From contig KV918810.1 in assembly GCA_002049455.2 (NCBI GenBank), positions 62,001 to 126,000 of the forward strand: 64,000 bases of DNA, in the 5' to 3' direction. Both the position numbers and the translations under genes were made by a program. Shown here one piece after another: positions 13,330 to 57,400 of the stretch. The notes under the pieces were generated by a model. The model did not search any database and was not told where the DNA came from. It saw only the letters and a list, made by a program, of their open reading frames with translations. Source of the stretch: Porphyra umbilicalis. Its lineage: Eukaryota > Rhodophyta > Bangiophyceae > Bangiales > Bangiaceae. How positions within the stretch are numbered: the stretch's first letter is position 1; every line of letters starts with the position of its first letter.

Positions 13330-13566
13330 AAGGCACGCAACGATGACCCGCGCGCGTCCGGCGTCTCCCCCACCACCGCCGTCTTCCGCGAGCGCCCCCG
13401 CTTGCTGGTCGACGACAATCCCCACTGGGACGCCCCCTGCGCCGCTCGCGCCCGCGCCTCCCCGGGCGCTTCTGCCGCCATGAAGGCCTACACGGTCTGC
13501 GACCGCGTGCAAGGGGCCCTGTCCCACCCGGGCGCGTCCGTGCCGTGCGTGACGGTGGGGTAACAC

Positions 13567-16394: not shown

Positions 16395-17018
16395 GGCCCT
16401 TAGGACAGGGTGCTCTCAAATTGTAGTGATGCACATATACTTAGATCAAGGGACTTGCTCTCCGTTTCAGAGGTTGCAGACTGCATTCGTGTCCTCAGGG
16501 ATCTGAGGGCGTGTCAATGTTGAAAGGGTCGCGATGACGCTAAAAAAGCGAATGGAGTTACGTGGCTGAGAAGGACTGTCCGGCCACAAGGGTCATAGGG
16601 CTCGGACGGCGCCTGCCCCCCTGCCCCCCCCCACCGCTCCAAGTTGCGCGGGGCAACCGCACGCAGCGACTTCCAGGGTTCGATGCGCCCGCGATGACCC
16701 GCGGGTGATCATGCCTGCGCGCCGGCTTCTGTTGCGGCGGCTCGTCGGCAGTATCTGACGCCGTCTAGCGGCGCGGTTAGAGGCGCCCAGTCGCGCGGCA
16801 GTCGGTCCCACCCGCCCGCCCGTGCGCCGTGTCGGCCGCCCCGCTCGCCGTGCGCAGGTACGCTACGCGGCGGAGCGACGGTCCCTCCCGTGGGCGTCGC
16901 GCGACGCCGGCGGGCCGCCGCCGCTGCAATGGTGGCGGCGGCACCCCTTTCCCCGCCCGACGTTTCCCCCCTCCACGGCAACGTGGCTGTACGTTCCCCC
17001 GTGCGCGCTCACGGCTAT
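16395..17018 (+). repeat. 0.7-kb repeat family, copy C (one end missing)
   Basis: Starts GGCCCTTAGGACAGGGTGC and follows copy A (32799-33505) closely: TAGTGATGCACATATACTTA, then GTGTCCTCAGGGATCTGAGG, then GTCGCGATGACGCTAAAA, then a GC-rich half. It stops matching near 17018, so its far end is lost. ORFs inside (for example minus strand 16777-17289) are shadows of the repeat. Confidence 0.85.
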
Positions 17019-19585: not shown

Positions 19586-20290
19586 AATTCCAGGCACGTG
19601 CGTGCAATACCCTGGCCTTCAGGGCGGTGGCGCGCTCGGCGACGCATCGACACGGGGCATGCCGGCCCGCCCCATGGCTGCGAGCGCGCGCGGGGGCACA
19701 TACAGCCACGTTGGCGTGGCGGGGGGCGCGCGGGGCGGGGAAAGGAGTGCCGCCGCCGCCACGACAGCGGCGGCGGCCCGCCGGCGTCGCGCGACACGCA
19801 CCAGAGGGGCCGTCACTCCGCTGCGCAGCGCACCTGCGCACGGCGGGCGGGGCGGCCGACACGGCGCACGGGCGGGCGGGTGGGACCGACCGCCGCGCGA
19901 CGGGCCGCCTCCAACCGCGCCGCTCGATGGCGTCAGAAATTGCCGACGAGCCGCCGCTACAGAAGCTGGCCCGCAGGCACGATCACCCGCGGGTCATCGT
20001 GGGCGGGTCGAACCCCGGAAGTCGCCGCGCGCGGTCGCCGCGCGCAACTCGGGGCGGCGGGGTAGGGGGGCAGGCGCCCTGTGACCCCTGTGGCAGGACA
20101 GTCCTTCTCAGCCACTTAACTCTATTCGCTTTTAGCGTCATCGCGACCCTTCCAACGCTGACACGCTCTCAGATCCCTGAGGACACGAATGCAGACTGCC
20201 ACCTCTGAAACGGAGAGAAAGTCCCGTGATCTAAGTATATGTGTGCATCACTACACTTTGAGAGCACCCTGTCCTAAAGGCCAGGGAACT
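19586..20290 (-). repeat. 0.7-kb repeat family, copy B
   Basis: Reverse-orientation full-length copy. Read on the minus strand it begins at GTTCCCTGGCCTTTAGGACA (end near 20290) and finishes with GTGCCTGGAATT at 19586. It shares with copy A both the low-GC half (TGATGCACACATATACTTAG) and the GC-rich half. Its outer edge touches the stop codon of the ankyrin gene at 20289-20291. Confidence 0.9.
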
Positions 20291-22175: not shown

Positions 22176-22312
22176 CACGGCGGCGGAGTGGTTGGGGCCG
22201 ACAAAGGGCACACAGCCGAGGGCCAGCGCCGCCCGTGCGGCAGCAGCAGAGACGGTGAGGTGGAGGTTGGAAACGCCGGCAGCTGCAGCGGTCCGGTCTT
22301 TTTGACGCGTGC
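22176..22312 (-). pseudogene. upstream partial duplicate of the ankyrin gene C-terminal module
   Basis: On the minus strand, in the same frame as the ankyrin gene and directly before its ATG, the translation reads AAAAGVSNLHLTVSAAAA and AALALGCVPFVGP. The gene's own residues 430-494 contain AAAAGLASLHHTVSAA and AALALGFVPIVGP. So a shortened copy of the C-terminal module sits immediately 5' of the gene. It has no ATG. It may be the tail of a former tandem gene copy. Confidence 0.7.
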
Positions 22313-24005
22313 ACGGCGCCCTCAGTGTTGAACGGCATGTTCAATTGGTCAGATAGCGACCGGGCAAACCCGAAGACCCAGCCGACCAGCGGACGTGCCT
22401 TCATACGCGGTCCGACGAGGCCACTGCTGGCTCTCGAGCACGCACCAACTCGCCAGGGCACGGTGGGTACAGCAACCCTCCTGTGCACATGCTGTACAGT
22501 CATTGCTCACTGGTGTAAGGGGGTGGCGCTTTTCGTAGCCCTGGTGATAATTTATAGAAGATTCGGCACCCTTGTCTGAATCCATCACCATCAGAGGGCG
22601 GCAGCACGCTCGAACGTGGACTTGGGTTTCAATTTCTAGGATCACGCACCCATGGACAAGGAAATGCTTCTGGGCCGGTTCTGAAGGGGTCCTGGCGGCG
22701 GTACATCGCCAATGTCAAGCCTACTTGACATCAGAGATTACTCGATCGCGGATCATCTCCGGATGATCGCGTCAATGGCTCGTCAAACACAGAATCATCT
22801 GTTTCCGAGGTTCGTTGCCAGGGACTACACCAGGGTTGTCAGCGTTTGGTTTGGTTTGCCAAACATGAACGGAATTCAACCTAATTCACTTGAACGCTCG
22901 AGCGTTCAGGTTGAACGCAACATGTCAAAGGCCGTACTTGTTCCGCGTAATACTTAGTGTGCCACGCTTAATGTAGTTGAGATTGTGCTTGGGGAAGTCG
23001 GGTTGTCTGACTCGAGCTCCATCGAGCTTGAGTCGCCAAGCCGATGTAGCGTGTGCATAGTAGGCCTGCTGCAGTCCCGGCGACAGAGCCCTGCTTGCCT
23101 GCCACACCACCGCGACACAATCCAAACGACTCGTACGAGCCGACGCCGGGGCGACGACGATGACAACCGCCTGGGCCTCCGCGCAGTAACGGAGACGGGG
23201 GGACCAAACAGAAAAGACCAAACACCGATACGTGTAGACGGGGCGTTGAGGGCGAGTGGATTCTCCGTTGTCTGAGAAGTAGCTTGCTGCACTCCACGCA
23301 ATCCTGGGTGCGACCACGACCCATCTATCCTCCAGCCAAAGAGGCTATGATTCACGCACACGTTGGCAGGAGATGAATCGATCTATGTACTCAGCGCCTA
23401 GGGTGCTACACAGCCGATTGGCAAAAGTTGACATGAAGGAGGGTCTGGGAGCAGAACTCTCAGCGCGACTGACCTGTAGGGGGTCTGGCAACGAGGCAGT
23501 CAGAGCGGCCGCACAGCGCCGAACCACCTGGCTGATCAATTTGAAGTGGTCAACGAAAGCTCCTGTCTGCCCGGGAAACTGATCATAAATACAACCAAGT
23601 CGTTTGTCGTTTGGTTTGGTTCGTTTCTTGAAATCAACCTGATTCATCGAACCATCTGTAGATTCAACATGAACTTACAACCCTGCTACACATTGCTCTT
23701 GGCGGACTAACCTTTGGTTGATTCTCTTTTGCCCTCTGGATAGTTTATCAAACGACATTTGGGCGCGACCTCTGTTCGATACACGGAGGACTACGATAGA
23801 AGTCGACGCTCATGGCGTTGAAGGATTATTCTAGGAACGTCGCAACAAAGCATGGTGTTGTCTGTTGTCACGACTGGAAATCCGCGCCGGACTCTTGGAG
23901 GCACTCATCGAACATGGTTCTGTGGGCGCTCGGAGGGCGTTTGGTTCGGCCGAACGCCGCCGATCGGCGACGCCAACGAAGGTGTTGCACTTCGTGCTTG
24001 TCAGT
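22313..24005. other. intergenic region, no gene seen
   Basis: 1.7 kb of lower GC between two divergent host genes (minus-strand ankyrin, plus-strand kinase-like). An 18-bp palindrome TGAACGCTCGAGCGTTCA lies at 22891-22908. Both promoters may lie here, but I see no clear core element. Confidence 0.5.
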
Positions 24006-24833
24006 ATGGACCAGTGTGCGGACGAGCCTCTTCGCGAGCTGTTCTCCTGTGACGTGATGGTCGGGGCCTGGCCGAACGGGAGGCATCACACGACGGTCGT
24101 GATTGCTTCTAAGGGTCTGAAGCGGCTGTTCGCATCCACTGACGTAAGGGTGGCCGATCTTGGGGACATCTCCAAGCGGAAGGATCTTTGTTTCGAGGTC
24201 GTCAACTACGCCGACATTTGCCCGGCGTTTGACGCCCTGTGGCACTCGGAGGCGTGCGTTGCTGCAGGATCGTCCGGGCGGGCGCTGTACGTGAAGGAGC
24301 TGGGCGTGGCGAGCTACGACGGCCCCGCTTCCACGCCTACCGTCAAGAAGATTGCCACGCAGGAGGCATACGTATGCGGGCTGCTGTCCCGAGCGGGCCC
24401 CCGTCACAAGAATATTGCCGAGTACCTCGGGTGTGTCGTGCGCGACGGGTGTGTGGCGGCCCTGGTCTTCCCCAAGTACTATGAGACGTTGGCGGAGCGG
24501 CTGAAGCGCGGGTGCGAGCCCGCAGACGTAGCAGAGGTGGTTCAAGGGCTACGGTCTGCGATCGCACACCTATACACCATGGACCTAAGCCACAATGACG
24601 TCAACCCGACCAACATCATGTTTGCTGGGCGGCAAGACACGACCCCCATCCTCATCGACTTTGACTCGTGTCGCGAGCTGAACAAGCCGCTGTTCAAGGG
24701 GTGTACTGACGAGTGGGGAGATCTGAACGCCAGAACGGCGCGCAAGGAGCATGACGACAATGCCGTGGAACTCATCGAGGCCCACCTGAAGACGTATACG
24801 AAGAACTTCAAGGCACAAGTCGGACAGCTCTAG
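24006..24833 (+). CDS. small atypical protein-kinase-like protein
   Basis: 275 residues from ATG at 24006 (MDQCADEPLREL); the frame is open upstream but has no earlier ATG. An N-terminal part of about 90 residues is followed by a compact kinase fold. LYVKEL (Lys97) fits the ATP-binding lysine. EAYVCGLLSRA (Glu120) fits the helix-C glutamate. LSHNDVNPTNIMF (residues 194-206) is the catalytic loop, with HND in place of HRD and the metal-binding Asn kept. LIDFDSC (218-220) is the metal-binding DFG position, here DFD. The closing residues lack the usual large C-lobe, so the protein is shorter than a typical kinase domain. Small fungal proteins with HNDINPSNI and IDFDSC blocks are similar. It may be an active kinase, a small-molecule phosphotransferase or a pseudokinase. 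Target unknown. Confidence 0.82.
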   Translation: MDQCADEPLRELFSCDVMVGAWPNGRHHTTVVIASKGLKRLFASTDVRVADLGDISKRKDLCFEVVNYADICPAFDALWHSEACVAAGSSGRALYVKELGVASYDGPASTPTVKKIATQEAYVCGLLSRAGPRHKNIAEYLGCVVRDGCVAALVFPKYYETLAERLKRGCEPADVAEVVQGLRSAIAHLYTMDLSHNDVNPTNIMFAGRQDTTPILIDFDSCRELNKPLFKGCTDEWGDLNARTARKEHDDNAVELIEAHLKTYTKNFKAQVGQL

Positions 24834-27315: not shown

Positions 27316-27732
27316 TGTTGGACTGTGATGCTCGTCGCCGACTCCACTGGCGGTTCGCGGATGGATGATGGTCGGTGACCCTTATGGTACCCCACATGGT
27401 ACATTTGCAAGACGTGGTCAAGTTGCACACATTCGTGTTGGGTCATCTTGGGGCGTTACTTTTGGCGAATTTTGGATTTGATCTTCGCTTTGCTCTAGTG
27501 GCTTTTGATTTGGTGAGTGATTCGATTTGGTGCGAGGGCGTGGGCGTCGGTGTGGGCGCGAGAGGAGGGAGCACTTGGGCCGGTGGGGACTATTTGAGAG
27601 GTGCTCTCGGTTGGGAGAGGCGGGCGAACCTTAGACAACCAACAAAGCACGTTCGCACACACACACACAATCTCAAGCCACTCAACCACTTCACCGTGGT
27701 CCCCCAACCCCTATCCCCACTGCGCTTCAACA
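27316..27732 (+). repeat. left LTR of the young copia element
   Basis: 417 bp, begins TGTTGGACTGTGATG and ends TTCAACA. Nearly identical to 31847-32263. A CA-dinucleotide run lies near its 3' end. Confidence 0.96.
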
Positions 27733-27750
27733 GGTTATGGGCCCAGAGCC
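27733..27750 (+). promoter_or_regulatory. primer-binding site of half-tRNA type
   Basis: GGTTATGGGCCCAGAGCC starts directly after the LTR. It is complementary to the anticodon stem-loop of initiator tRNA-Met (CCCATAACC), not to the tRNA 3' end. Drosophila copia and yeast Ty5 are known to prime with a half molecule of this tRNA, and the first 14 bases match the Drosophila copia site as I recall it. Confidence 0.8.
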
Positions 27751-27884
27751 GGGGCTGTGACAAGAGCAAGGTGTGCCGGCTGGTGTCGCGGCGAGTGCGA
27801 AGAGGACGAGGTCAAGGTGGTTCAAGGACGTGACGGTCAAGGCGCACGGCTCGGCAAGGTCGGGCGCTACGACAAGACGACATC

Positions 27885-30800
27885 ATGGACGGAGGCGCTG
27901 CCGGCATGGGCGGCATCAAGATCGACAAGTTGACGGAGACGAACTTCCACGAGTGGCGTCAGCGCATTGAGATGGTCCTCGCGCTGCGCGACCTGGACGA
28001 TATGCTTGACGAAGACGGCAGGCCGACGGACGCGGAGACCCGCAAGTTGGCGGTGTGGAAGCGTCGAGAAACGGAGGCGAGCGCCATCATCGGGCTCACC
28101 CTTGGGTCTGAGCAGCTCGAGCACGTGTCGGGCTGCAAGACGACGGCAGAAATGTGGTCGACGCTGCAAGGTGTCTTCCAGCGCAAGAGTTTGATGAACA
28201 AGATGAAGGCGCGACGCGAGTTCTACACCGTCGAAATGACCGTCGCCGAGCGCATGCTGGGCTACATCAACCGCGTGCGCAACCTCGGCGAGAACCTCAA
28301 GGCCATGGGCGGCGAGGTGACGGAGATGGACGTTGCCATGAGCGTCCTCAACGGGCTGACGTCAAAGTACGAGAACCTGCTGGTGGCTCTCGACGCCGAG
28401 GGCGAGGACGAGCTGAGCCTCGACTTTGTCAAGAGCCGCTTGCTTCAGGAGGAGCGGCGGCAGGCGGACAAGTCACCGGCGACGAAGCGCATTGGCGACA
28501 TGGCACTCGTCGGCGCCAACTATCGAGGTCAAGGCCGCCGTGGTGACCTCTCCAAGATCGAGTGCTACTACTGCCATACGTTTGGGCGCATCTCTCGTGA
28601 TTGCCCAGAGCTCAAGGCCAAGAAGCAGAGACATGACAAGGTGGCCGCGATTGCTGCTGACGATGGTAGCGACAGCGACGACGCCATCTGTCTGGTGGGC
28701 ATTGCAGCTGACACCGATGACATCTCCAAGTCGTGGCTTGTGGACTCTGCGGCGTCTGCACACATGTGCTGGATGCGCGGGTGCTTCGACGACTACCATA
28801 CGACCACGGGACGGAGCGTCACGATGGGTGACAAGGGGTCCGTAGCCACGGCGGGCGTCGGAACCGTCGTGCTCAATGTCATCGTTCACGGCAAGACGCG
28901 CAAGATCAAGTTGGAGAAGGTACTCCATGTTACTACAATGGGCTTCAACCTCATGTCGGTCGGCATGATGGAGGAGCGTGGAGCGGAAGTGTCATTCAAG
29001 GGCGGTAAGACGATCATCAAGATGAACAAGAAGATTGCTGCGTGCGGCACTCGTAAGAACGGGCTCTACCACCTGGACATGTCCCGACTGTCGGATATTG
29101 CTGCGGTGGCCTTTCTTCAGCTCTGGCATGAGCACCTTGGGCACGTCAACGTGGCTGGCGTTAAGCGGATGATCAAGAACAAGGACATAAATGTACTCAA
29201 GTGCTCTTCCATGGCGGTCAAGGACGTCTGCGAGCCGTGCGTGTATGGGAAGGCGGCTATGACGCCTATGCCTAGTGCAGGAGGAGGTCGAGTGACCAAG
29301 CGCCTGCAGCTCGAGCACTCGGACCTGGGCGGGCCAATGTCGGAGCCGTCGCGTGGCGGTGCACTCTACTTCGGCACCTTCACCGACGACTTCTCCCGCT
29401 GGACCGACGTGGTCTTCCTGCAGAAGAAGAGCGATCTGCTCTCTGAGTACAAGGAGTGGCTGACTAAGGCCCAGCTGCACACGGGAACCAAGATCAAGAT
29501 CCTGCGATTCGGCAATGGCGGCGAGCACGTGTCGAACGCATTCAAGGCTCTCCACGATGAGAACGGCACGACGCACCAGACCACGGTGCCCGAAACGCCG
29601 CAGCAGAACGGAGTTGCTGAGTGGCTCAACCGAGGTCTCGTGGAGATGGCTCGCACCATGGTGCGACATAAAGACGTCGATCAGGAATTTTGGGCGGATG
29701 CCATCAAGACGGCGGTGTACACTAAGAACCGCGTCACGAGCCGGGCGCTTCCCGTCGGCAAGACGCCTTTTGAGCTGTGGACCGGGAATAAGCCCAACGT
29801 AAGCCACATGCGGGTGTTTGGGTCGACATGCTGGGTGGTGCTGCACAAGAGTCACATCGACGGCACGTTTGGCGACAAGGCGGCGAAGGGCGTCTTCTTA
29901 GGCTATCCCGACGGCAGCAATGCGTACAAGGTCATCCTCGACGACGGCAAGGTCTTCAAGGCACGAAGCGTTGTGTTCGCCGAGACGAACGTAAGCGAGG
30001 TCGCAGAAGTTGCGGAGGAGCTTCCCGAAGACGAAGTTGTCGAAGTCGAGACGGGCTTGCGTTCTGAAAGCGACGGCGAAGACGTAGATGCTGACAATGA
30101 CGAAAAGGACGAAAAGCAAGACGATGGATCTGACAAGTCCGCGGACGACAATCAAGGTAGTGGCGGCTCTCAAGACACGCTACGTCGGAGTGGCAGAGCG
30201 CGGCGACGACCTGTCGAGTACTGGCGCCCAGTGAGCCTGGTTGCGCACGAGGCGCCCACGACGTACGTGCAAGCCGTTCAAGGGCGAAAATCGGCTAAGT
30301 GGAAGATTGCTATGGACGAGGAGATGGAAGCCATCTGCAAGAACAAGACTTGGCGCTTGACGGATCGCCCGGCCAGGCGACGCGTGCTGAAGGGCAAGTG
30401 GGTTTACAAGGTCAAGAACGAGGTTGACAAGAACGGGAACAACACGACGCGGCACAAGGCGCGCCTGTGCTTCATGGGGAACCGGCAGATCAAGGGGCTC
30501 GACTTCAACGAGACGTTCGCGCCGGTGGCCAAGTTCACCACCATTCGATGCATCCTGGCGATGACGGCGGCGAACGGGTGGGAGCCACATCAGATGGACG
30601 TCAAGACGGCATTCCTCAACGGCGACCTTGAAGAGGTGGTCTACATGGACCAGCCAGACGGCTATGTCGATCCGACGTATCCTGACAAGGTGTGTCGTCT
30701 CCTCCAAGCGCTGTATGGGCTGAAGCAAGCCCCCAAGATGTGGTACGCCAAGCTCGACGACTTCCTCAAGTCGCAGGGGTTTGACAACATTGACCCGGAT

Positions 30801-31811
30801 GCATGCCTCTACCTCCTTACGGATGACGGCGAAATCATCATCGTCCTGGTGTACGTCGACGATCTTCTTTTGGTGGCATCAAGCCTGGCGGCGATCTACA
30901 AGATTAAGGACGCTCTGCACAAGCGTTTTGAGATGAAGGACCTGGGCGAGGCGAAGGTCATCCTTGGGCTAGAGATAAGACGTGACAAGGCGTTGGGCAC
31001 CCTCAAGCTGTCGCAGGGCAAGTACGCGGGGCAAGTGCTGGAGAAGTTCGGGATGGCGGAGTGCAACCCGATCGGAACGCCGCTGGAGGTGGGCCTGCAG
31101 CTGGTCAAGGCCAACGAGAGCGACGACGCGCTGCTCTACCGCGAAGCCGTCGGCAGTCTAATGCACCTGATGTTCGGGACGCGTCCTGACCTCGCCTTCG
31201 CCATCGGGAAGCTGAGTCGGTTTGTCTCGGGCTACGGCAAGAAGCATTGGGCGGAGATCAAGCGCGTTCTACGGTATGTCAAGGGTTCGATGGACAAGGG
31301 GCTGGTCTTCGACAAGAGCTCTTCCTGTGTTCTACAAGGCTATAGTGATGCCGACTGGGCGGGTGACCACGAGACGCGACGTTCTACGACGGGCTTCACC
31401 TTCCTCTTTGGCGGAGCAGCCGTCAGCTGGGGTTCTAAGTTGCAGAAGACGGTGGCGCTGTCGACGACGAAAGCTGAGTACATGGCTCTATGTGAGGCCA
31501 GCAAGGAAGCTGTTTGGCTCAACAAACTCGTGCAAAGCGTGGCATCTCAAGGGCTGCGAACAGCGATCTCGGGCGGGCCGATCAACATCAAGGTCGACAA
31601 CAGCGGGTGCATTGACTTCTCCAAGAGCCCCGTCGAGCACAAGCGCACCAAGCACATCGACATTCGATACCACTTCGTGCGCGAGGCCATCACGATGGAC
31701 AAGGTGACACTGCAGCATTGTGCAACTGACGACATGGTGGCGGACCCGATGACGAAGGAGCTCGGCAAGACCAAGCACGACAAGCATGTCGAGGCCATGG
31801 GGCTTTGCTGA
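27885..31811 (+). CDS. copia gag-pol polyprotein
   Basis: One frame of 1308 codons from ATG to TGA. Domains in order, with rough residues: gag (1-215, with a copia-gag block ending SLDFVKSRLLQEERR), a zinc knuckle (about 227-240), aspartic protease (about 280-380, WLVDSAASAHM), a pre-integrase zinc domain (about 408-460, LWHEHLGHVNV), integrase core (about 470-640, with the PETPQQNGVAEWLNRG block), an acidic linker (710-770), reverse transcriptase (about 800-1050, with MDVKTAFLNGDLEE and the YVDDLL active site) and RNase H (about 1140-1280, GYSDADWAGD and STTKAEYMAL). Gag and pol lie in one frame, as in many copia elements, so the gag:pol ratio is set after translation or by splicing. It is part of the mobile element, not a host gene. 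Confidence 0.96.
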   Translation: MDGGAAGMGGIKIDKLTETNFHEWRQRIEMVLALRDLDDMLDEDGRPTDAETRKLAVWKRRETEASAIIGLTLGSEQLEHVSGCKTTAEMWSTLQGVFQRKSLMNKMKARREFYTVEMTVAERMLGYINRVRNLGENLKAMGGEVTEMDVAMSVLNGLTSKYENLLVALDAEGEDELSLDFVKSRLLQEERRQADKSPATKRIGDMALVGANYRGQGRRGDLSKIECYYCHTFGRISRDCPELKAKKQRHDKVAAIAADDGSDSDDAICLVGIAADTDDISKSWLVDSAASAHMCWMRGCFDDYHTTTGRSVTMGDKGSVATAGVGTVVLNVIVHGKTRKIKLEKVLHVTTMGFNLMSVGMMEERGAEVSFKGGKTIIKMNKKIAACGTRKNGLYHLDMSRLSDIAAVAFLQLWHEHLGHVNVAGVKRMIKNKDINVLKCSSMAVKDVCEPCVYGKAAMTPMPSAGGGRVTKRLQLEHSDLGGPMSEPSRGGALYFGTFTDDFSRWTDVVFLQKKSDLLSEYKEWLTKAQLHTGTKIKILRFGNGGEHVSNAFKALHDENGTTHQTTVPETPQQNGVAEWLNRGLVEMARTMVRHKDVDQEFWADAIKTAVYTKNRVTSRALPVGKTPFELWTGNKPNVSHMRVFGSTCWVVLHKSHIDGTFGDKAAKGVFLGYPDGSNAYKVILDDGKVFKARSVVFAETNVSEVAEVAEELPEDEVVEVETGLRSESDGEDVDADNDEKDEKQDDGSDKSADDNQGSGGSQDTLRRSGRARRRPVEYWRPVSLVAHEAPTTYVQAVQGRKSAKWKIAMDEEMEAICKNKTWRLTDRPARRRVLKGKWVYKVKNEVDKNGNNTTRHKARLCFMGNRQIKGLDFNETFAPVAKFTTIRCILAMTAANGWEPHQMDVKTAFLNGDLEEVVYMDQPDGYVDPTYPDKVCRLLQALYGLKQAPKMWYAKLDDFLKSQGFDNIDPDACLYLLTDDGEIIIVLVYVDDLLLVASSLAAIYKIKDALHKRFEMKDLGEAKVILGLEIRRDKALGTLKLSQGKYAGQVLEKFGMAECNPIGTPLEVGLQLVKANESDDALLYREAVGSLMHLMFGTRPDLAFAIGKLSRFVSGYGKKHWAEIKRVLRYVKGSMDKGLVFDKSSSCVLQGYSDADWAGDHETRRSTTGFTFLFGGAAVSWGSKLQKTVALSTTKAEYMALCEASKEAVWLNKLVQSVASQGLRTAISGGPINIKVDNSGCIDFSKSPVEHKRTKHIDIRYHFVREAITMDKVTLQHCATDDMVADPMTKELGKTKHDKHVEAMGLC

Positions 31812-31835
31812 ATACAAGAACCACCGCGGCAACAA

Positions 31836-31846
31836 GAAAGGAGGAG
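31836..31846 (+). promoter_or_regulatory. polypurine tract of the young copia element
   Basis: AAAGGAGGAG-type purine run ending directly at the TG of the right LTR, 25 bases after the polyprotein stop. Confidence 0.8.
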
Positions 31847-32263
31847 TGTTCGACTGTGATGCTCGTCGCCGACTCCACTGGCGGTTCGCGGATGGATGAT
31901 GGTCGGTGACCCTTATGGTACCCCACATGGTACATTTGCAAGACGTGGTCAAGTTGCACACATTCGTGTTGGGTCATCTTGGGGCGTTACTTTTGGCGAA
32001 TTTTGGATTTGATCTTCGCTTTGCTCTAGTGGCTTTTGATTTGGTGAGTGATTCGATTTGGTGCGAGGGCGTGGGCGTCGGTGTGGGCGCGAGAGGAGGG
32101 AGCACTTGGGCCGGTGGGGACTATTTGAGAGGTGCTCTCGGTTGGGAGAGGCGGGCGAACCTTAGACAACCAACAAAGCACGTTCGCACACACACACACA
32201 ATCTCAAGCCACTCAACCACTTCACCGTGGTCCCCCAACCCCTATCCTCACTGCGTTTCAACA
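31847..32263 (+). repeat. right LTR of the young copia element
   Basis: 417 bp, TGTTCGACTGTGATG to TTCAACA. Followed by the target duplication TGATT. Confidence 0.96.
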
Positions 32264-32798: not shown

Positions 32799-33505
32799 AA
32801 TTCCCTGGCCTTTAGGACAGGGTGCTCTCGAAGTGTAGTGATGCACACATATACTTAGATCAAGGGACTTGCTCTTCGTTTCAGAGGTGGCAGTCTGCAT
32901 TCGTGTCCTCAGGGATCTGAGGGAGAGTCAGCGTTGGAAGGGTCGCGATGACGCTAAAAGCGAATAGAGTTACGCGGCTGAGAAGGACTGTCCTGCCACG
33001 AGGGTCACAGGGCCCAGACGGCGCCTGCCACCCTGCCCCCCCCCATAGTCTCTAGTTGCGCGCGCCGACCACGTGCAGCGACTTCCAGGGTTCGACGCGC
33101 CCGCGTGGACCGGCGGGTGATCGTGCTTGCGCGCCGGCTTCTGTTGCGGCGGCATGTCGGCGATTTCTAACGCCATCTCGCGGCACCGTTAGAGGCGCAC
33201 CGTCGCGCGATGGTCGATCCCATCCGACCACACGCGCGCCTTGTCGGCCGTGCGCAGATGCGCTGCGCAACGGGGTGACGGCCCCCCCCGTAGGCGTTGC
33301 GCCACGCCGGCGGGACGCCGCCGTCGCGGCGGCGGCGGCGGCACCCCATTCCCCGCCCCACGCCCCCCCCGCCACGGCAACGTGGCTGCACGCGCCCCCG
33401 TGCATGCTCGCGGCCATGGAGCTGGCCGGCTTACCCGGTATATATGCGTCGCCGAGCGCGCCACCGCCCTGAAGGCCAGGGTATTGCACGTACGTGCCTG
33501 GAATT
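32799..33505 (+). repeat. 0.7-kb repeat family, copy A (full length)
   Basis: 707 bp from AATTCCCTGGCCTTTAGGAC to GTGCCTGGAATT. Inner inverted motifs are CCCTGGCC near the left and GGCCAGGG near the right (33474-33481). The left half is average GC, the right half GC-rich (GGCGGCGG near 33330). The family has copies B and C in this window. No transposase is encoded; overlapping ORFs run on both strands and are not supported. Probably a non-autonomous DNA element. Confidence 0.88.
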
Positions 33506-45174: not shown

Positions 45175-45748
45175 TAGTTCCATGTCGAATACGCTGGAAA
45201 ACCGTTTCGAGAAGGCACAATTGAAGTGCTCCACCTCCCTCACATCCCTCTCTGAGCGTGTAGCATGTCGTGTATCTTGCTGACCGTCTCTACCGAAGAG
45301 TGAACCGATCACGCACTACCATTGGCAGACGCATGATGGGTCTCAGAACGAGTTCTCAGTCAACTCTAGTGGCCAATGGCAAGCCAAGACCGGTGCAACA
45401 GTAGATGCAAGAGTTCTCGCCAGTGAGCTATTGTCCCCACCACGCGTGAGTGAGATTTTAGTTCCCCCGCCACGGGTGCAACGATGGAGGCAGGCCCTTC
45501 GATTGTGTGCCTTTTCTGTCCTCGGCCGGGATTTGATGCTCGCAAAATTCTGGAATCGTCTCTGTCCACCGTCGCGCCCAGTCGCACGATTGCGGCGTCC
45601 CACCTGGAATGAGTCGAGCAGAGCTTTTGTCGCCCGTGCTTTTCGAAGTTTTGAGTGGGTAAGTGCAAGTTTATTCGCTTTCATGGGAATATTCTCGACT
45701 TGTCACATGTGCCGGTCACTATTGATGCCGCCCGAGTGTCGGAAAATC

Positions 45749-46147
45749 TTGCTGATCCCCGAATTATGACTTGGTGGACAGAGACTGACTTGCGGACCGA
45801 CTCTCTCCACCAATCACATGCGCCCCTGGGACTAACTTTGTGCTCCTGATTGCTTACCTGTGCCCATGCAGCCTGGAAATCAACATCAGGTCCTCTTCTT
45901 TTCTGCACTTCTGGCGAGGAGAAAGTAGAAAATCCCAAGATCTCGCGTGGGCAGCTTTCTCCGTGCCAAGAAAAGCGGATCAAGCGGCAACAAACAGTGA
46001 GTTCTGCTCGATGCAAGGTCCTGGCACAGAAGGCGGGCTTTCTATTGGCTTCGATGCCTTCTTACTGTCGTTGTCAACCAATAGAGTGCTCGCATACAGA
46101 GTCAGTATTTGTCTCTGTCCCCCCGGACAAAGTTCGGGGACCAGCAA
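45749..46147 (-). mobile_element. 399-bp inverted-repeat element (MITE family 1), copy 2
   Basis: Starts TTGCTGATCCCCGAATTATG and ends GTTCGGGGACCAGCAA. Its plus strand matches the reverse complement of copy 1 along the whole length. No clear target duplication. It ends 135 bases before the tRNA-Pro gene. Confidence 0.85.
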
Positions 46148-46255
46148 TGTATGGAGCGACCTTACCAGCTAAACCGCAAATGACATCTGTTCTTATGGTG
46201 AGGGGTCAGAGTCGTGCTGTCGAGACCTATTCGGGCAGCTCAGGACGAGATACCG

Positions 46256-46266
46256 GGATTCGAACC
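46256..46266 (-). ncRNA. isolated tRNA-like T-arm (B-box) sequence
   Basis: On the minus strand GGTTCGAATCC, followed by CGGTATCTCG, is a perfect RNA polymerase III B-box with an acceptor-like tail. I see no D-arm or anticodon arm that would pair with it, and the T-stem does not close. It lies just downstream of tRNA-Pro and may be a tRNA relic. Confidence 0.4.
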
Positions 46267-46282
46267 AATAAAAGTGATAGCG

Positions 46283-46379
46283 GGGTGATCCAAGATTTCC
46301 TGTTATTGCACTCGCGCGCTGATCGAACTCGGGACCTCGCGCACCCGAAGCGCGAATCATACCACTAGACCAATCACCC
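46283..46379 (-). tRNA. tRNA-Pro (CGG) with a 26-nt intron in the T-loop
   Basis: On the minus strand: acceptor GGGTGAT, D-arm GTCTAGTGGTATGATT, anticodon stem CGCGC/GCGCG with loop TTCGGGT (anticodon CGG), variable loop AGGTC, T-stem CCGAG. The T-loop then starts TTCGA, is interrupted by 26 bases (46297-46322), resumes with AT, and the arm closes with CTTGG and acceptor ATCACCC. Without the insertion the T-loop is the standard TTCGAAT and the molecule is 71 nt with all stems paired. The next base is C, usual for tRNA-Pro, and a TTTT terminator follows at 46270-46273. The anticodon loop itself has no intron. Ectopic introns like this are known from nuclear tRNAs of red algae. Confidence 0.88.
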
Positions 46380-46457
46380 TGCTTGTTGACACTGGCCGCT
46401 TGACTAGTATTAGTTCAGCTGTGTCCGTCACGCGTGAGGCAGCGCCTTATTTTATCG

Positions 46458-47397
46458 CTAGTGCAACACCATCTGGGGCCGCTTTCCTGAAACAAAGCGC
46501 GAGTAGGTACGCAACCCGCGCTCGAGCAAGCCTGTACACCCAGTGACCTGCGGGTGCGAGATGGAGCTACGGCAGCCAAGGTTGTCCATAATCAAGTAGA
46601 CATGATGCGCGGTGCGCGCTTGAATTTCCGGCACAAACACCTCTTCGAACCAGCGCTTGAAGACAGAAGCGTCAGTCAAAGCCGACTTCTTCGAGAAGTA
46701 CGGCAGCGGGCTCGCGTTGCCCTCGCCTTGGAAGCACATCAACTGAGCTACCTTGCCAATCATCGTGACCGGCACCTTGTGGGTACCCGTCGCGTTGCAG
46801 CAGAGATTCTAGGTAACACGGTCGTTGCCCTTCATCGCCTTCGAGCCACGTGCAGTGCGGCGGTCCTCGAAGGGCACGTATGAACGCGATGGTAGCCCCC
46901 GGTAGAGCAAAACCGGTCTCGTTGACGTTGTAGATCAGGTCGACATAAACACCCTCAAGCTACTGGCGGATGGCTGCCATGCGGCCAGCTGCCCCATCCA
47001 CGTTGGCCGAAGCGCCGCTTCAATGCAGAGCAACGTTCACGACGCCATGACGGGACGCCAAACGTTGAATGGAGTCGATGGACGCCGCAAAGTCAGTGAT
47101 GCCAAGGTGCTCCGCAACCTGCAAAGCCTTCTGCCGAAGAATGTCAAGAGGCAAAGGCACACGCTTGCGGCCCCTCGCACGCACAGTCAGGAACCACTCC
47201 AAGGGGGCGCCTCCAATGCGCCGGGCCGGCGCGCGCGTCGCAGTTGGGGATACCAAGACAGCATTGGCCGTCACGGCCGCGGCCCGCGCGGCCGCCCTCA
47301 CGCTCTCGGCGTGCTCCGCAGCCAATGCCTTGCTAAGGTCTTCCAAGACCGCCTCAGCCGCGGCAGCGGCGGCATCAGTAGCACTGGAGAGTGTCAT
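46458..47397 (-). pseudogene. pogo/Tigger-type (CENP-B-like) transposase, broken
   Basis: From ATG at 47397 the first segment (to 47020) has an Ala-rich leader and then a CENP-B/Tc5-type helix-turn-helix: PLPLDILRQKALQVAEHLG, then FAASIDSIQRLASRHGV. Next, in the same frame after a TGA at 47020-47022 and a TAG near 46960, comes LIYNVNETGFALPG, the first catalytic block of the DDE domain with Asn where the catalytic Asp is expected. After a change of frame and another stop near 46810, the open segment 46458-46775 reads RWFEEVFVPEIQ and YLIMDNLGCRSS, the second DDE block. So there are at least three stops and one frame change. The 131-bp MITEs in this window have pogo-type ends, but I cannot show that this enzyme moved them. 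Confidence 0.8.
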
Positions 47398-47665
47398 TGT
47401 GGTATGAGGATCGCCGTGAGTACGAGTGGTGCGGTACGGTGGGTAGGGAGAGGAACATAAGTGTGGTCGGTGCAGACGAATCACGCCGAAGTCGGCTGGA
47501 TCGGCTTAGCCGTCAGCGTAGCTCCGGTCGCAAACGGCAGGGGTTAGTTACTGATCCGTGGAGTTCAAGTAATTCGTTTGGTGTTAATTTAAGTACAAAC
47601 CCCGGGTGGCAAGTGCATTTTAAATTCACATTCCTTGATCTCTCGGGCTCTGTGTTGCCTGCGTT

Positions 47666-47700
47666 GTCCCGGTTATATTCACTGTGGATATAACCGGGAC
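47666..47700. repeat. 35-bp hairpin with pogo-like ends
   Basis: GTCCCGGTTATAT and ATATAACCGGGAC form a 13-bp perfect stem around TCACTGTGG. Read on the minus strand, CAGTGAATATAACCGGGAC resembles a pogo/Tigger terminal repeat, 270 bases upstream of the broken transposase start. It could mark that element's end. Confidence 0.55.
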
Positions 47701-47855
47701 GGATAAAACTGAATAATGACTGTACTGACCGCTGCCGAGCAGCAACCCTTGTTGCAGTTGCGCCGAAGGAGCAGCCTTCCAGATCATGACATCCGGTTCA
47801 AGGCGTACCAGGACCAATGTGGCTACGATGCCCCGTCTCGGACCAAGCGCTCGCA

Positions 47856-48026
47856 TGGGACGAAAATGTGCTCGCGTGAGACGGAATTTTCAATGATGTG
47901 AGACGGAAATGCGCTGACGTGAGACGGAAATGCGCCCGCGTGAGACGGAAATGCGATGACGTAAGGGAAATGCGCTTGCGTGAGATGGAAATGCGATGAC
48001 GTGAGACGGAAATGCGCCCGCGAGAG
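47856..48026 (+). repeat. 21-bp tandem repeat
   Basis: About seven units of GTGAGACGGAAATGCGCTGAC with the last five bases alternating between types (CTGAC, CCCGC, ATGAC). One unit is shortened by two bases. Confidence 0.92.
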
Positions 48027-51000
48027 TCTAACGGCAGGCGGCTGTTCTGGGGGGCAGAAGCCTATCTTTCCGACGCTCATGAGCACTTGATTGATGGCGA
48101 TGGGCGGCCGCATGGGTATTCAAGCCGATCATCTTTCCAAGTTGACTGACTTCAACTCGATTCTCGCGGATAACCTAATCCAAGATGGATTCTAAAAATT
48201 ATAACAAGCAACGTTATTTTGCTCATGAGAATATGTTCATCAGCACCACATCTCCCGACTTTCGAGCGCGTGCCAGAGAAGGAACTTCAAAGGATAGTAG
48301 GGCGGCGTACAGACAGAGGAGACCGAGTTAGAGTTGCTCTATGAGGCGAATGTAGCGCTGGAGACGAGCGCACGTTGGCTCTTGACGTAGTCTCGCGTGA
48401 TTTATCTCAGATCTGTGGCTTTAAACATGTGTGCGCATTTTATGCAGGCCAGAGACCATCTTCAACAATCAGCTCGCATGAGTATGCTTTTTGACGTAGG
48501 CCAGCATCTGGCCAGGTGGCCGGTGTGTTCGAAGCGGATAGATCGTCGTGCTGGTGCCGCACATTCTGGTTGGAGACCTAATTCCAGACAAAGCGCAGAG
48601 TGTCTCTCACACGGTTCAGCCAACATCCTTGAACAGGCACATCAATACTCTATGTGTGACTCAATGAGTGCCCACATGATCCAGAACCGACACGCAGCCA
48701 GCGGGGAATTAAATAGGATGAGTGGAGTCTTGCACATGTTCAATATCACTGGCGCTATCGAGTTCCACGCTGTTAGTCGCAGTCGGCGAATACCAACGAA
48801 GGGCATACGACAGATTTCTGGCAACCACGGACCTCATAAGAGGTACGTCGAGAACGTGCAAACTGAGTCTCTAAGAGTGTGTCGACGAGACACGAAGAGC
48901 CCATATCATGGGAGTGCATCGTGACGCGTGAGTATTTTCCTGTCAGTAGTTGAGCTGACTCCGTGCTTGCACGCACACCCTGCAGTGGCTTGCAATCTTG
49001 AACGTGTGGAAGGCAACGTACACGATCCGCTACAGCTGCTACGCGCGCATCTCAGCGTAGTTGTTTAAGTCAATAACTCGGCTGCAACGGAACTGATGTA
49101 GTCTACCTTTTTCCACAGCATCTCCTTCATGGCTTCGTTCACAAGCCAAAACCACGGCAGGTAGAACAGTTCAGCCAGTCCACAGCTCAAAACCTTCGAG
49201 TCGGAGTGGAGATGGAGGCTAGATTCTCGCGTTGCTTGCATTGATGATACCCCCTCACGTGGTAGCCTCGCTATCTACACTCCTTCCCATCCCATGCGCC
49301 TCGCAGTACAGTGTCGTGCGTGCCAAAGGCGCCTGATTCTTCGAGGCCCGAATACAGATTAAAACTCTCTGTCCTGATAACCGCGCCCCGGGTCTCGCGC
49401 AAGTCCTTACGAAAGCAGACATTGCACTCGACTCCGTCGAAAAAACTTGGCAACCTTCTTTCATTTGCGTGAGGCAACGAGCCCGCTCTTGAAATTGTCA
49501 TGGAAAAATGCGAACGACACCGCGTAATTAGTGCGTATTGTTGGTGGTGTCTGTGCGCTGCTCTTCGTCTACTATGTACCTTCGCAGATGAAGCAGCTGC
49601 TTTTGCCTCATGCCGATCGCCTCTCCTCCACCAGCACCCACCTGTGTAAAAATCTTCCGCAGCACCTGATTGACTTACGGCGCCTCATCTCCAGAAGACC
49701 GACCACCTTCACCGCTTGCATTCCTGTCTTCTGCAAGTTTCAGAATATCGTCGGTGACCTTTTTCGCATCCTCAGAGCGCTCATTGTGCGGAGACATCGT
49801 CACATATCACCATGTCGGCCGTCAGTCAGATTCCTCGCCGCCCCCACAATCGACGTACAATCCGTAAACAAGCACCCTCGTGCCTCACGCCCAGATAGCT
49901 GTGATAGGTGCGGCACTTCCGTCGGCGTCAAAGCAAAAGGTACAATTGTGCGCGGTTCCGAGCTGCCGGGAGAGATCTTGGCTCAACGACAATTGAATGC
50001 ATCTGCTCACCCACGGTCGTCGTGACCGAACGGCCGCAGCCTGGTCCCTGACCCACCAATGTCGCGGCGCAGATCTTCTGTTGTACCGCATGTGCAATGC
50101 CCGAAACAGCGTCCGTGTGACCCGTAAGGTGCGGATGGGCTGGAAAAACCGGGCATGCGAGAAAAGAACTTCTTCAGGGGCGGGAATGCCTCAGAAACCG
50201 GCTGGAAGAGCGAGTAGCTGTCTATGTGGTTGCTTTGCATGGAGGAGGGGACGGCCGGCGGGCACCATAGCCATTTGCAGTGGTCTATGCCACTTTCAAC
50301 CCGCAATACTCGAACTCAAGCATTCTATGTGGGTCAGATGTGGGCCAGGGTTGAGCCGTGGGCTCTCTATTTGGCAGTGCTGCAGCTGAGGGCGGCTAGC
50401 TGCACTCTTAGGCTCATGTCACTTCAAACTCGCACTCTCTTGCATTCCCCCATAACAGATGAGTACAGACAAAATTATGTTATCAGCTGAGCATTCGTTT
50501 TTTTTATTTTCTGAAGAAGAAGAGATACAGTCAGTCTTCATCCATATCCCGTCCGGATGCTGACCTACTGGCATATGGACGGAACTCACTCGTTTTCGTA
50601 AATTGGACGTTGCATGTGGACTGAGGTCGACTTGTGATCGAGAACAACGATTGCGAGAGGATCGCAATCGATTCCAAATCCGTCCCGATGGAGACCTCAT
50701 ACCGCCAGGACGTCGTCCAGAGTGTTCATGACCAAGCCCTAGTACGTCCTGGACTTCCTGGGTGCTTAAAGACTTGTACACTGGCCATCTGCAGGTGCCT
50801 CAGCATCTCTTTCCCTGCTGCTTTGAGACAAGAGCGTCACATCGCGGAGTCGGATGCGCGTGTTGCAAGACGTCAGATCAACTCCTTCAGTGTCAACATT
50901 CCGCATTTGAATCAGACAGTGCGGCTCCGGACCAGCGGGCTACATGAGTATTCGAAAGAGACCGTGCAACACGGCAACGACACCGGTTCTAACGGAGGGT

Positions 51001-54207: not shown

Positions 54208-54325
54208 GGGGCTGTAGCTCAGTGGTAGAGCGCGCGCTTACCGGCGGGCCCTCAGCAGGGCAACAGGGTGGCGTGACAGTACGCTATCGCAATGCGAGGT
54301 CCAGGGTTCGACTCCTTGCAGCTCC
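54208..54325 (+). tRNA. tRNA-Ala-like gene with a roughly 45-50-nt insertion
   Basis: Acceptor GGGGCTG/CAGCTCC has the G3:U70 pair that marks alanine tRNAs. D-arm GCTCAGTGGTAGAGC and T-arm CAGGGTTCGACTCCTTG are complete. The discriminator is A, and a T-run terminator follows at 54327. Between the 5' anticodon half (CGCGCTTA, to 54240) and the 3' half (GCAATGCG, from about 54288) lie about 47 extra bases. Removing them gives TTAGCA, compatible with AGC, but the 3' anticodon stem then seems one base short, so splice points and anticodon remain open. It is either an intron-bearing gene with a weak stem or a damaged one. Confidence 0.65.
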
Positions 54326-54430
54326 ATTTTTATCTCCTGGAGTGAAGGTCTGACTCCTTGCAGAACCCTTTCTATCCCCTGTACTGGAGGTCAGACTCCT
54401 TTCAGCTCCATTTTTTTCTCCTTCACTGAT
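54310..54430 (+). repeat. 42-bp tandem array derived from the tRNA-Ala 3' end
   Basis: Units start at 54310, 54352 and 54394 with GACTCCTTGCAGCTCC or close variants, followed by a T-rich part and CTCC. The first unit is the end of the tRNA gene plus its terminator. Confidence 0.8.
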
Positions 54431-54452: not shown

Positions 54453-57400
54453 CACATTTCAACATGCGCATACCGGCCCCCATTCTTATTTTTTTCCGAG
54501 CACGTTGCGGGAGTACTTGCGAAAAAGCGCGGTGGCCGCGAGGAGACCTCGTACGGCTCAGGCCGACGTCGCTGTACGGTGAGTCCGACATGGTTAGAAG
54601 CGTCCTTCTGCAACGTATCTCTGCATGTGTTTTGGCAGCATGGCCGTACATTGGGCGGTTGTGAGGTCCAGCCATGTGAAGGAAGGGTCTTTTTCTGGTT
54701 CATATGTCTTGAAACGGGGGGTCTGCGTTTGAGATGAGCTGGAAGCGAATATGCGTGCTGCATTTGACTGCGTCGGGTGCGGAATTGATAGTGTAATTGG
54801 TGGAACCTGCCTCTGAGATGCTCCTGACGATGTTTTTGTTCTTCAAATTTTTGACGGGCAGGAGAAGGCCAAGATCGGGGACAGCCGAGACGCGTGAAAT
54901 ATGGTGTGACCGTGGCGCGCAGTGGCTGAAGCGGGCAGTTGTGAGTGGCGCCACGCAGCTGCCCGCGTAGTGCTGTGAGCGGGCCTGTGACGGGGAGAGG
55001 GCGGCGCCGTGCGTGTGGCCTGCGCGAGGGGGTGGTGGTGTCGTGGTGGCGAAACTGGCCATGCGTGATGTTGCGCAGCTGACCGCGCGGTACGTCGTTG
55101 GGGGAAGTGACCGGACAGGGGGGTTCGTTCGGGGGGTTGTGGAGGGATTGAGGGGCTGTTGGGCTGGAGGGGGTGGGGGGGAGAAGAAGCCGCTGGCTTG
55201 CCGGTGGCAGCCCCTACGGCGGCAGCGGCGGCCCCTGCGCGCTGGCCCTTGGCTGCGATAGGCTTGCTGCTGGCAACAAGCCTAGCCACCATGAAAGAGC
55301 GGGCAGGAGTGGCGTGGCGTTCGCCTCGGGGGGCGGGTGGGCTGCGTGGTAGCGGCGGCGGAGGCAAACGTAGGTGTGAGGCCGGATGGCTTGGGGGGGT
55401 GAGGTTGTCGGCGAGCCGTGCGTGACTTAGGTGTCGCAAGCGCGGCGTCGCCTGGGTGGGGGGCCGGCGCGCTCCGGGGCGGACGGCTCGGGCGCGCGCG
55501 CCTGCCCGTGGACGCCCGCAGGGACATGAAAATAAAAACCAATGCAGTGCATGAAAAATGTAGCCACGTGCCAAGTGAAGTGCTCGCTGCATGTTTCAAG
55601 TCTAAATAATGCTTCGGAACTTGCACAAATAGATGGCCTTCGAATACAGCACAACTCTAGGCCAGCGTGTTTTCGCACACGCGCTTTGAGTCGGCTCAAA
55701 TGTGCCAAAGAGGGGCCTCTGCTGGTTGGAAACGAGCACCGGTGCACCGCTGGCTGCCGCGGACTCGGCTGTGACGCGCCGCGTGTGTCGGTTTGGGGTC
55801 CCCCGCGTCGCCGAGGCGCGCGCGTCGACCGCGCCCGCTGTCGACGCCGTCACCCGCCCCCACCCACCGGTGGCGGGTGCCCGACCGCACGGCGGCGGCG
55901 GCGACGGCGCGGCGTGGCTTTCACCGCCGCGACGGTCGTCGCGGCGGGTCGCACCGCGCGGGCGGTCGCCCGACCCGCCACCCGCGGCGTGACGGTGGCG
56001 GCGGCCGGTGCGGACGTCGACGTGGTGGGGGGGTTGGCTGGGGAGCTAGTGGCGCTCGCCACCCGCTGCCATGCTGCGGGCGTTGCTGGAGGGGGGAGAG
56101 TTTCCCCCGCCGCCTCTGCTGCCGCGAGGTGCGGTGGGGGGGAGGCGTCTGAGACGTGATCAACGAGCTCGGCGTCGCGTCGCCCGTGACCGCCGAGGCG
56201 ACCGCCGGCGCGCGGCGGGGGCGCAGCGCCGAAACCGTCGACGATGCGGCCCGTCAGCGTCGCCCGACCGTCGTGCCTGGCGCGCGGCGGCAGCGGCATG
56301 GCCCGCCCCGACGGCTGCGGCCGGAGCGACCGCGCGCGGCTGTGCGCGCAAGCGGCCACCCCCCAAAGGCCGGGCGGGCGCCTGTCACGCCGGTGGCTCG
56401 CCGTCGGCGTGCCCTCGCGGCGGGTGACGCGCCCCGGCGGCGTGGCCGCCGTGGACGCGGGGGGGGGCTCAGCGGCACCGCCGCGGCGGACGCGCGGCGT
56501 CGCGACTGTGTCCAAACGGCTCTGTCGGCCGTGTCCATGGGCCGGCGGTGGCGGGGGGGGGTGCGAGTGGCCCCCTGCTCGCCGTAGTGGCAGACATGCG
56601 CGGAGCGGCGACCGCGGGGGTGGGGGGATTGCCGCGACGTGAGGGGGTGGGGGGATTGCCGCGACGTGAGGGGGTGGGGGGATTGCCGCGACGTGAGGGG
56701 GTGGGGGGATTGCCGCGACGTGAGGGGGTGGGGGGATTGCCGCGACGTGAGGGGGTGGGGGGAAGTGCGGTGGGACCTCAACCGCTTTGCCGGAGGGGAG
56801 GGGGGGGAGGGCGCGACGCGGGGAGGGATACGAGCGGGGTGGGCCGCACAGTGGGCGGGCGCTGACGCTGCACCCCCGCGCGCGCGCGGCGTGTGGCGCC
56901 GCGCCGCCGCCGCGCCGCGCCCGCCGCGACGCCGCGCCGCGCCCGCCGAGCCGCCGTGCCGCGGGCGCGCGCCCACAGCGGCCGCGCCGCGCACCGGCGC
57001 ACCCCGCCGAGCGGCTGCCCCGCACGCGTGGCATGCCACCACCTTGGCCGGCGCACGGTCGTCGCACCGCGCGTCGGCCCGCCAGTCGGTGGCGGCGCCA
57101 CACACCCGCGCCGGTGGCTGTCTACCCCGCGCCGCCCCTTGGGTGACGGCCTAACCGACGGGCACGGGCGCGGCGGCGGCGCGCCGCACGCGCGCCTGCT
57201 GTTTCTCCCTTTGGCCGCGACGTGCCACGCCGCGTGCCGTCGCCGCCGACCGGCGGCGCCGCGGCCGTGCCGCGCGTCGCCACCCGTCGGGAACACCCGC
57301 CGTCCCGCCGGTTGTTTTTTCGCCTTGTTGCCGGTCGCCGCTCGCGCGCGCGGGAACGCCCCCCGTGCGTGGTCGCCAGACGCTTCCGCCACGGCTCGCC

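What the first reader, a model, noticed from the sequence alone, without database searches (positions are those of the whole stretch)
46283..46379. tRNA-Pro with an intron inside the T-loop
Seen: every arm of a tRNA-Pro(CGG) is present, but 26 bases split the T-loop after TTCGA. Removing them restores TTCGAAT and a closed T-stem. Known: canonical nuclear tRNA introns sit one base after the anticodon; ectopic tRNA introns and permuted tRNAs are documented in the red alga Cyanidioschyzon merolae. Inferred: this genome uses the same noncanonical splicing, which also points to a red algal source.
Basis: partly seen in the sequence, partly recalled or inferred. Interest (0 to 1): 0.82.

Follow-up and report, generated by a model that had tools for sequence, protein, structure and literature searches.

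The report
tRNA-Pro gene interrupted in T-loop
A gene for a proline transfer RNA in an unidentified repeat-rich eukaryote is intact except for 26 extra bases inside one of its loops, most likely a rare type of intron cut out of the RNA, although a dead gene copy cannot be excluded from the sequence alone.

Summary
On the minus strand, 46379-46282, lies a tRNA-Pro(CGG) (Rfam 38.8 bits, E 1.2e-4) split in the T-loop by 26 bases. Acceptor, anticodon and T stems pair 7/7, 5/5 and 5/5; the discriminator is C. ARAGORN sees no gene here with the insert and tRNA-Pro(CGG) without it. The junction is ambiguous (after position 56, 57=58 or 59). I prefer 59/60 (intron 46321-46296), the T-loop equivalent of the canonical 37/38 site.

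Best explanation: an ectopic T-arm intron removed by the tRNA-splicing endonuclease (about 0.55). The intact body, an AT-rich block near -30 and a T-run favour it. Against: no proper bulge-helix-bulge (3 of 4 central pairs, reached by 29% of shuffles; no inner helix), a broken B box, and a published view that such insertions usually mark pseudogenes (rival, about 0.35).

The red-algal inference is not established: reviews link ectopic introns to a red alga, but also report T-arm introns in nucleomorphs of chlorarachniophytes, and neither a genome nor a relative was found. New oddity: a perfect B box just past the gene's T-run. Known kind; moderate interest.

The parts
46282..46379 (-). tRNA-Pro(CGG) gene with a 26-nt insert in the T-loop (72 nt mature, C73 at 46282)
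   Evidence: Rfam RF00005 38.8 bits E 1.2e-4; ARAGORN names tRNA-Pro(cgg) only when the insert is left out
46296..46321 (-). preferred intron (position 59/60; leaves TTCGATT). Alternatives of the same length: 46297-46322 (58/59), 46298-46323 (57/58), 46299-46324 (56/57)
   Evidence: enumeration; of six cuts tried only 59/60 aligns all five T-stem pairs as the outer helix of a BHB-type site
46308..46319 (-). small hairpin inside the insert, GCGC-GCGA-GTGC
   Evidence: ViennaRNA fold of the insert alone, -5.5 kcal/mol
46298..46301 (-). insert bases that could pair with T54-G57 (central helix of a relaxed BHB): T-A, T.G, C-G, G/A mismatch
   Evidence: 3 of 4, P about 0.29 by insert shuffles
46405..46412 (-). 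AT-rich TATA-like block TAATACTA at -33..-26
   Evidence: an 8-mer with at least 7 A/T at -38..-22 occurs at 5882 of 127760 window positions (4.6%; 8.2% locally); the criterion was set after seeing the sequence
46270..46273 (-). TTTT, candidate Pol III terminator, +107..+110
46256..46266 (-). orphan perfect B box GGTTCGAATCC just downstream of the T-run, +114..+124; function unproven
   Evidence: GGTTCRANYCC is expected 0.62 times in the window by chance and found twice (13 of 100 shuffles reach 2), the other being inside the second tRNA
54208..54326 (+). second interrupted tRNA of the window: Ala-like (G3.T70, A73; identity rule recalled), 47 nt longer than a 72-nt tRNA, excess in the anticodon region, anticodon not assignable
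   Evidence: Rfam 47.1 bits E 6.2e-7; ARAGORN with introns calls it Gly(acc) with a 26-nt intron and a 93-nt mature form; none of 3 one-intron solutions has an Ala anticodon

Best explanation
A nuclear tRNA-Pro(CGG) gene carrying an ectopic 26-nt intron in the T-loop, most likely between positions 59 and 60. Shown: the interrupted cloverleaf, the intact stems and the intact invariant bases. Inferred: RNA polymerase III starts from an upstream AT-rich element and stops at the T-run; the tRNA-splicing endonuclease cuts on both sides of the insert and a tRNA ligase joins the halves, restoring the loop TTCGATT, after which the T-loop is modified normally. The 59/60 cut repeats the geometry of the canonical 37/38 cut: a 7-base loop closed by a 5-bp stem, cut after its sixth base.
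For: All acceptor, anticodon and T-stem pairs are kept across the insert (none in 20 shuffled windows). Leader and trailer also pair around the acceptor stem (11-nt arms, 91%). A TATA-like block near -30 stands before both tRNA genes of the window (background 4.6% overall; 8.2% and 4.9% locally, criterion post hoc) and a T-run follows each: the arrangement described for C. merolae, whose tRNA boxes are often interrupted (PMC3978253, passages). The other of the 2 tRNAs in the window is interrupted too, but in the anticodon region, the ordinary place, so this is weak support. T-arm introns are removed in the G. theta nucleomorph (PMC4090602, section 5) and T-introns with hBHBh' motifs are described in C. 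merolae (PMC9602550, passages). From memory, not from a call: against the usual eukaryotic tRNA-Pro body the anticodon stem differs by a compensated pair (28-42), as expected of a constrained gene.
Against: BHB support is at chance level (3 of 4 central pairs, P 0.29; inner helix 0 of 3). The free fold of the precursor (-34.8; z -1.29, 23 of 200 shuffles as good) pairs the insert with the anticodon arm and is 4.5 kcal/mol better than the cloverleaf with three stems held (-30.3); 69% of 500 shuffled inserts have at least that gap, so the insert shows no sign of being shaped to fold well. The insert breaks the internal B box. PMC4090602 says short D- or T-arm insertions in eukaryotic tRNA genes are mostly found in one of many synonymous genes and are supposed pseudogenes. 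No transcript data, no relatives, no genome.
Confidence: 0.55

Rival explanations
1. A recent pseudogene: an ordinary tRNA-Pro(CGG), one of several copies, that received a 26-nt insertion in its T-loop and has not yet decayed elsewhere.
For: PMC4090602 names this as the usual explanation. BHB and folding support are no better than chance. The insert breaks the internal B box. The neighbourhood holds mobile elements: a partial DDE_1 transposase match in the frame 46461-46808 and a 400-bp element with inverted ends at 45749-46148. The insert shares the 7-mer GCGCGAG with the tRNA's own anticodon-stem region (34 of 2000 shuffles as long), as a faulty local duplication might leave.
Against: No other decay seen: long stems and invariant bases kept. 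No direct repeat of 8 or more bases in 46200-46420, although a shorter target duplication cannot be excluded.
Confidence: 0.35
2. The insert is removed by another route, or is tolerated: the mature RNA keeps an enlarged T-loop and is not a translating tRNA (for example a tRNA-like small RNA).
For: The precursor's best free fold is not a cloverleaf.
Against: The bases T54, T55, C56, G57, A58 and the 5-bp T-stem are kept in the form needed for a normal 7-base loop; the precursor fold is not significantly better than shuffles (z -1.29).
Confidence: 0.05
3. Assembly or sequencing error, or chance resemblance.
For: Only one copy was examined; no reads available.
Against: E 1.2e-4 in Rfam; no comparable structure in 20 shuffled windows; a clean 26-base error would be unusual.
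Confidence: 0.05

Closest known systems
Cyanidioschyzon merolae nuclear tRNA-Ile(UAU) T-arm intron (PMC9602550, passages seen)
   Same: nuclear tRNA gene of a eukaryote, short insert in the T-arm; an upstream TATA-like element and a downstream T-run are described for tRNA genes of that genome (PMC3978253, passages)
   Different: there the cut is at 53/54, with hBHBh' motifs and three introns in the gene; here most likely 59/60, one insert, no inner helix
Guillardia theta nucleomorph tRNA introns (Kawach 2005, as told in PMC4090602 and PMC3978253; original not seen)
   Same: inserts of 3-24 nt at non-canonical positions including the T-arm, many without a defined BHB, removal confirmed by RT-PCR
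   Different: a nucleomorph, not a repeat-rich 62% G+C sequence; here no RNA evidence, insert 26 nt
Archaeal non-canonical introns at 56/57 and 59/60 (PMC4090602, passages)
   Same: same T-loop positions as candidate cuts here
   Different: archaeal; splice sites in BHB, HBh' or h'BH motifs
Permuted tRNA genes with the break in the T-arm (C. merolae tRNA-Ala(UGC) etc., PMC4090602 section 5)
   Same: processing site in the T-arm
   Different: here the two parts are in normal order; my scan found no permuted tRNA in the window

Membership tests
Ectopic (non-canonical) tRNA intron | tRNA otherwise complete, interrupted elsewhere than 37/38 | tested here: met
Ectopic (non-canonical) tRNA intron | insert removed from the RNA in the cell | not testable with these tools
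   needs tRNA sequencing or RT-PCR
Ectopic (non-canonical) tRNA intron | splice sites in a bulge-helix-bulge or relaxed form | tested here: inconclusive
   outer helix 5 of 5, central 3 of 4 (P 0.29), inner 0 of 3 at 59/60; other cuts worse. Strict hBHBh' not met, relaxed form possible
Canonical eukaryotic tRNA intron | position 37/38 | tested here: not met
   anticodon arm is uninterrupted
Permuted tRNA gene | 3' half upstream of 5' half | tested here: not met
   normal order; 0 permuted candidates in both strands for a break after TTCRA in the T-loop, other break points not scanned; no 5' half with an A box near the orphan B box (0 of 18 acceptor-like 7-mers)
tRNA pseudogene | decay of stems or invariant positions | tested here: not met
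   D-stem T.T position only
tRNA pseudogene | redundant with an intact synonymous gene | not testable with these tools
   no whole genome held; no other tRNA-Pro among the 2 tRNA matches of the window
Red algal genome | taxonomic placement | not testable with these tools
   no relatives found (collections of viral, bacterial and archaeal sequence); G+C near Bangiales only, among the red algae named in PMC7423979

The most novel reading that the evidence does not exclude
The insert broke the gene's internal Pol III B box (GTTCGATCA) and a perfect B box (GGTTCGAATCC) at +114 to +124, just past the T-run at +107, has taken over, as in yeast SNR6, whose B box lies downstream of its terminator (PMC2667510, passages). 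A T-loop intron would then be kept by an external promoter element, in a nuclear genome that carries ectopic tRNA introns widely.
Probability: 0.12. Interest if true: 0.68.

Novelty: new member of a known kind. Interest (0 to 1): 0.43.

Why it matters
In the papers seen here, nuclear tRNA introns outside the anticodon loop are described from one red alga, with further cases in nucleomorphs. A T-loop case in a repeat-rich, 62% G+C eukaryotic sequence would, if spliced, show that relaxed splicing-endonuclease specificity is not tied to compact genomes, and that gene finders which expect introns only in the anticodon loop miss such genes (ARAGORN missed this one). The broken B box also makes it a natural test of how such genes are transcribed.

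Tried and rejected
Relatives: the Copia polyprotein of the window in genome contigs and viral contigs and a tRNA-Pro body pattern in both gave nothing; these collections are not meant to hold eukaryotes, so this says little. Own genome: not held. Host genes for placement: 30 open-frame queries to Pfam (10 each; 29 regions, one given twice), a selection from the frames, not all of them. 5 of the 29 matched something: Copia domains (27834-31808), ankyrin repeats (20292-22340), RVT_2 below cut-off (13564-15420), Pkinase and TCAD9 below cut-off (23835-24830) and DDE_1 (46461-46808); nothing taxonomic. A PDB sequence search of one frame found nothing.

Permuted tRNA around the orphan B box: 18 acceptor-like 7-mers nearby, none with the A-box pattern. 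Transposon capture of the tRNA: the 17 inverted-repeat pairs of 45600-48400 show none that convincingly brackets tRNA plus transposase. Insert as duplicated tRNA sequence: a 7-base match only. Bacterial-type promoter and terminator scan: nothing, as expected. The cloverleaf energy of -24.6 used a wrongly placed D-stem constraint and is not used; (-30.3) replaces it. My first structural scan kept one D-arm alignment per start and missed the second tRNA; one search replaces it.

The Ala-like gene: with two introns allowed the search is too free (309 solutions, 39 with an NGC anticodon), so no anticodon is claimed.

Literature: the original papers (Soma 2007 and 2013, Kawach 2005, Maruyama 2010) were not read; Soma 2013 is not held. 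Six searches bear on tRNA introns; I saw their listings, which were cut short in 12, 23, 24 and 34, and opened passages of some papers. I saw no report of a 59/60 cis intron in a eukaryotic nuclear tRNA, but this is no proof of absence: figures and most subscription papers are not held. Two more searches were on tRNA-derived repeats and downstream B boxes.

Full report
Observation. The minus strand 46379-46282 reads as a tRNA-Pro with anticodon CGG whose T-loop is split by 26 bases. Rfam's tRNA model matches the whole span with 38.8 bits, E 1.2e-4. A permissive run lists 16 matches with E up to 5, of which 2 are tRNAs, this one and one at 54208. ARAGORN finds no tRNA in the window without introns and, with introns allowed in the anticodon loop, only the one at 54208. 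With the insert left out it reports tRNA-Pro(cgg) for each of the three junctions tried. My own scan asked for a cloverleaf with at least 11 of 12 acceptor plus T-stem pairs and a 3' part placed freely: it finds these two genes, and nothing in 20 shuffled windows.

Anatomy. Acceptor 7/7, anticodon stem 5/5, T-stem 5/5 with one G.T, discriminator C73; the D-stem has one weak and one T.T position. Loop plus insert is 33 bases, so 26 are in excess. Because A and T recur at the borders, cuts after loop base 3, 4, 5 or 6 all leave an acceptable loop. The cut after base 6 (59/60) is the one in which the T-stem becomes the outer helix of a bulge-helix-bulge-type site, as the anticodon stem does for 37/38 (geometry from established knowledge; tested). 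A review lists 53/54, 56/57 and 59/60 among archaeal positions (PMC4090602, passages).

Fold. At 59/60 the central helix has T-A, T.G, C-G and a G/A mismatch: 3 of 4, which 29% of shuffled inserts equal or beat (4 of 4 in 4.9%). The inner helix has 0 of 3 pairs. The other five cuts tried have 1 or 2 central pairs. The insert alone forms a GCGC-GCGA-GTGC hairpin. Free folding prefers a form in which the insert pairs with the anticodon arm (-34.8) over the cloverleaf with three stems held (-30.3). Shuffled inserts behave alike (69% of 500 have at least that gap), so this neither helps nor kills the intron reading. Eukaryotic enzymes need not see a strict motif: many G. theta nucleomorph introns have no defined BHB (PMC3978253, passages), and removal of such introns was confirmed (PMC4090602, section 5).

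Transcription signals. TAATACTA lies at -33..-26; the second tRNA has AATACAAAAAT at about -35..-25. An 8-mer with at least 7 A/T at -38..-22 occurs at 4.6% of window positions (8.2% and 4.9% around the two genes). Multiplying the local rates gives about 0.004 for both, but I set the criterion after seeing the sequences. TTTT follows at +107. For C. merolae a review argues that tRNA genes with interrupted boxes are driven from an upstream TATA-like element without TFIIIC (PMC3978253, passages), which would explain how this gene can live with a split B box. Alternatively, a perfect B box GGTTCGAATCC stands at +114..+124 on the same strand. GGTTCRANYCC is expected 0.62 times in the window and found twice (13 of 100 shuffles reach two), the other being inside the second tRNA. 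Falling by chance within 60 bases downstream of this gene has a probability of about 3e-4, again judged after the fact. It is not part of a complete T-arm and no partner half was found. Yeast SNR6 has an A box inside, a terminator at +109 and a B box at +233 (PMC2667510, passages), a precedent for the layout.

Second tRNA. 54208-54326 (+) has the acceptor, D- and T-arms of an Ala-type tRNA (G3.T70, A73; the identity rule is recalled) and 47 bases more than a 72-nt tRNA, in the anticodon region. The three one-intron solutions have the loops TTACCGA or TTACCGG, none with an Ala anticodon. ARAGORN's Gly(acc) leaves a 93-base product. It may hold more than one intron, or be damaged. Its 3' end is repeated in tandem downstream, and the last copy could also close the cloverleaf with 11 of 12 pairs. 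Because the excess sits where ordinary introns sit, it is only weak support for ectopic splicing in this genome.

Source. No genome is held. A Copia element with near-identical repeats (27316-27732 and 31847-32263, 99.3%; domains), a DDE_1 match and other repeats point to a eukaryotic nuclear sequence with 62.2% G+C. Among red algae a paper gives 64-67.9% for Bangiales and 37-57% for others (PMC7423979, passages). A Bangiales-like alga fits, but many other eukaryotes would too. I do not endorse the red-algal inference.

Judgement. That this is a tRNA-Pro(CGG) gene with a T-loop insert is close to certain. That the insert is a working ectopic intron is favoured by the intact body and the transcription signals, weakly by the second interrupted tRNA, and opposed by the poor splice-site fold and the published view on such insertions. 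I put it at 0.55 against 0.35 for a pseudogene. It belongs to a known kind, in a possibly new lineage.

Noticed in passing
54208-54413: Ala-like tRNA, 47 bases longer than a 72-nt tRNA, with no assignable anticodon; its 3' end is repeated in a 42-base tandem array of about 2.5 copies, with T-rich stretches between, and a later copy could close the cloverleaf too.
   Followed up: partly
46256-46266: Perfect Pol III B box GGTTCGAATCC on the minus strand 3 bases past the T-run of the tRNA-Pro gene, without a closed T-arm or a partner half.
   Followed up: partly
27316-32263: Copia-type LTR retrotransposon: terminal repeats 99.3% identical, one 1325-aa open frame with gag, reverse transcriptase and other matches (integrase core just below cut-off). 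GGTTATGGGCCCAG after the 5' repeat looks like a primer site for the anticodon arm of initiator tRNA-Met (recalled).
   Followed up: partly
45749-46148 and 9789-10188: A 400-bp element in two copies (88% identical, opposite strands); the first has 37-base inverted ends (81%): MITE-like, about 130 bases from the tRNA. Coding content and the inverted ends of the second copy were not tested.
   Followed up: partly
46461-46808: Partial DDE_1 transposase match on the minus strand (profile 8-90 of 177, E 2.8e-15); its open frame ends about 80 bases before the tRNA-Pro gene. A neighbouring frame, 46675-46959, looks related by eye but has no Pfam match.
   Followed up: partly
16388-17018, 19586-20289, 32801-33505: Three copies of a 600-700 bp repeat, 83-86% identical, the middle one inverted relative to the others.
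   Followed up: no
56616-56763: A tandem array (100% matches) of a 27-base G-rich unit, 5.5 copies.
   Followed up: no
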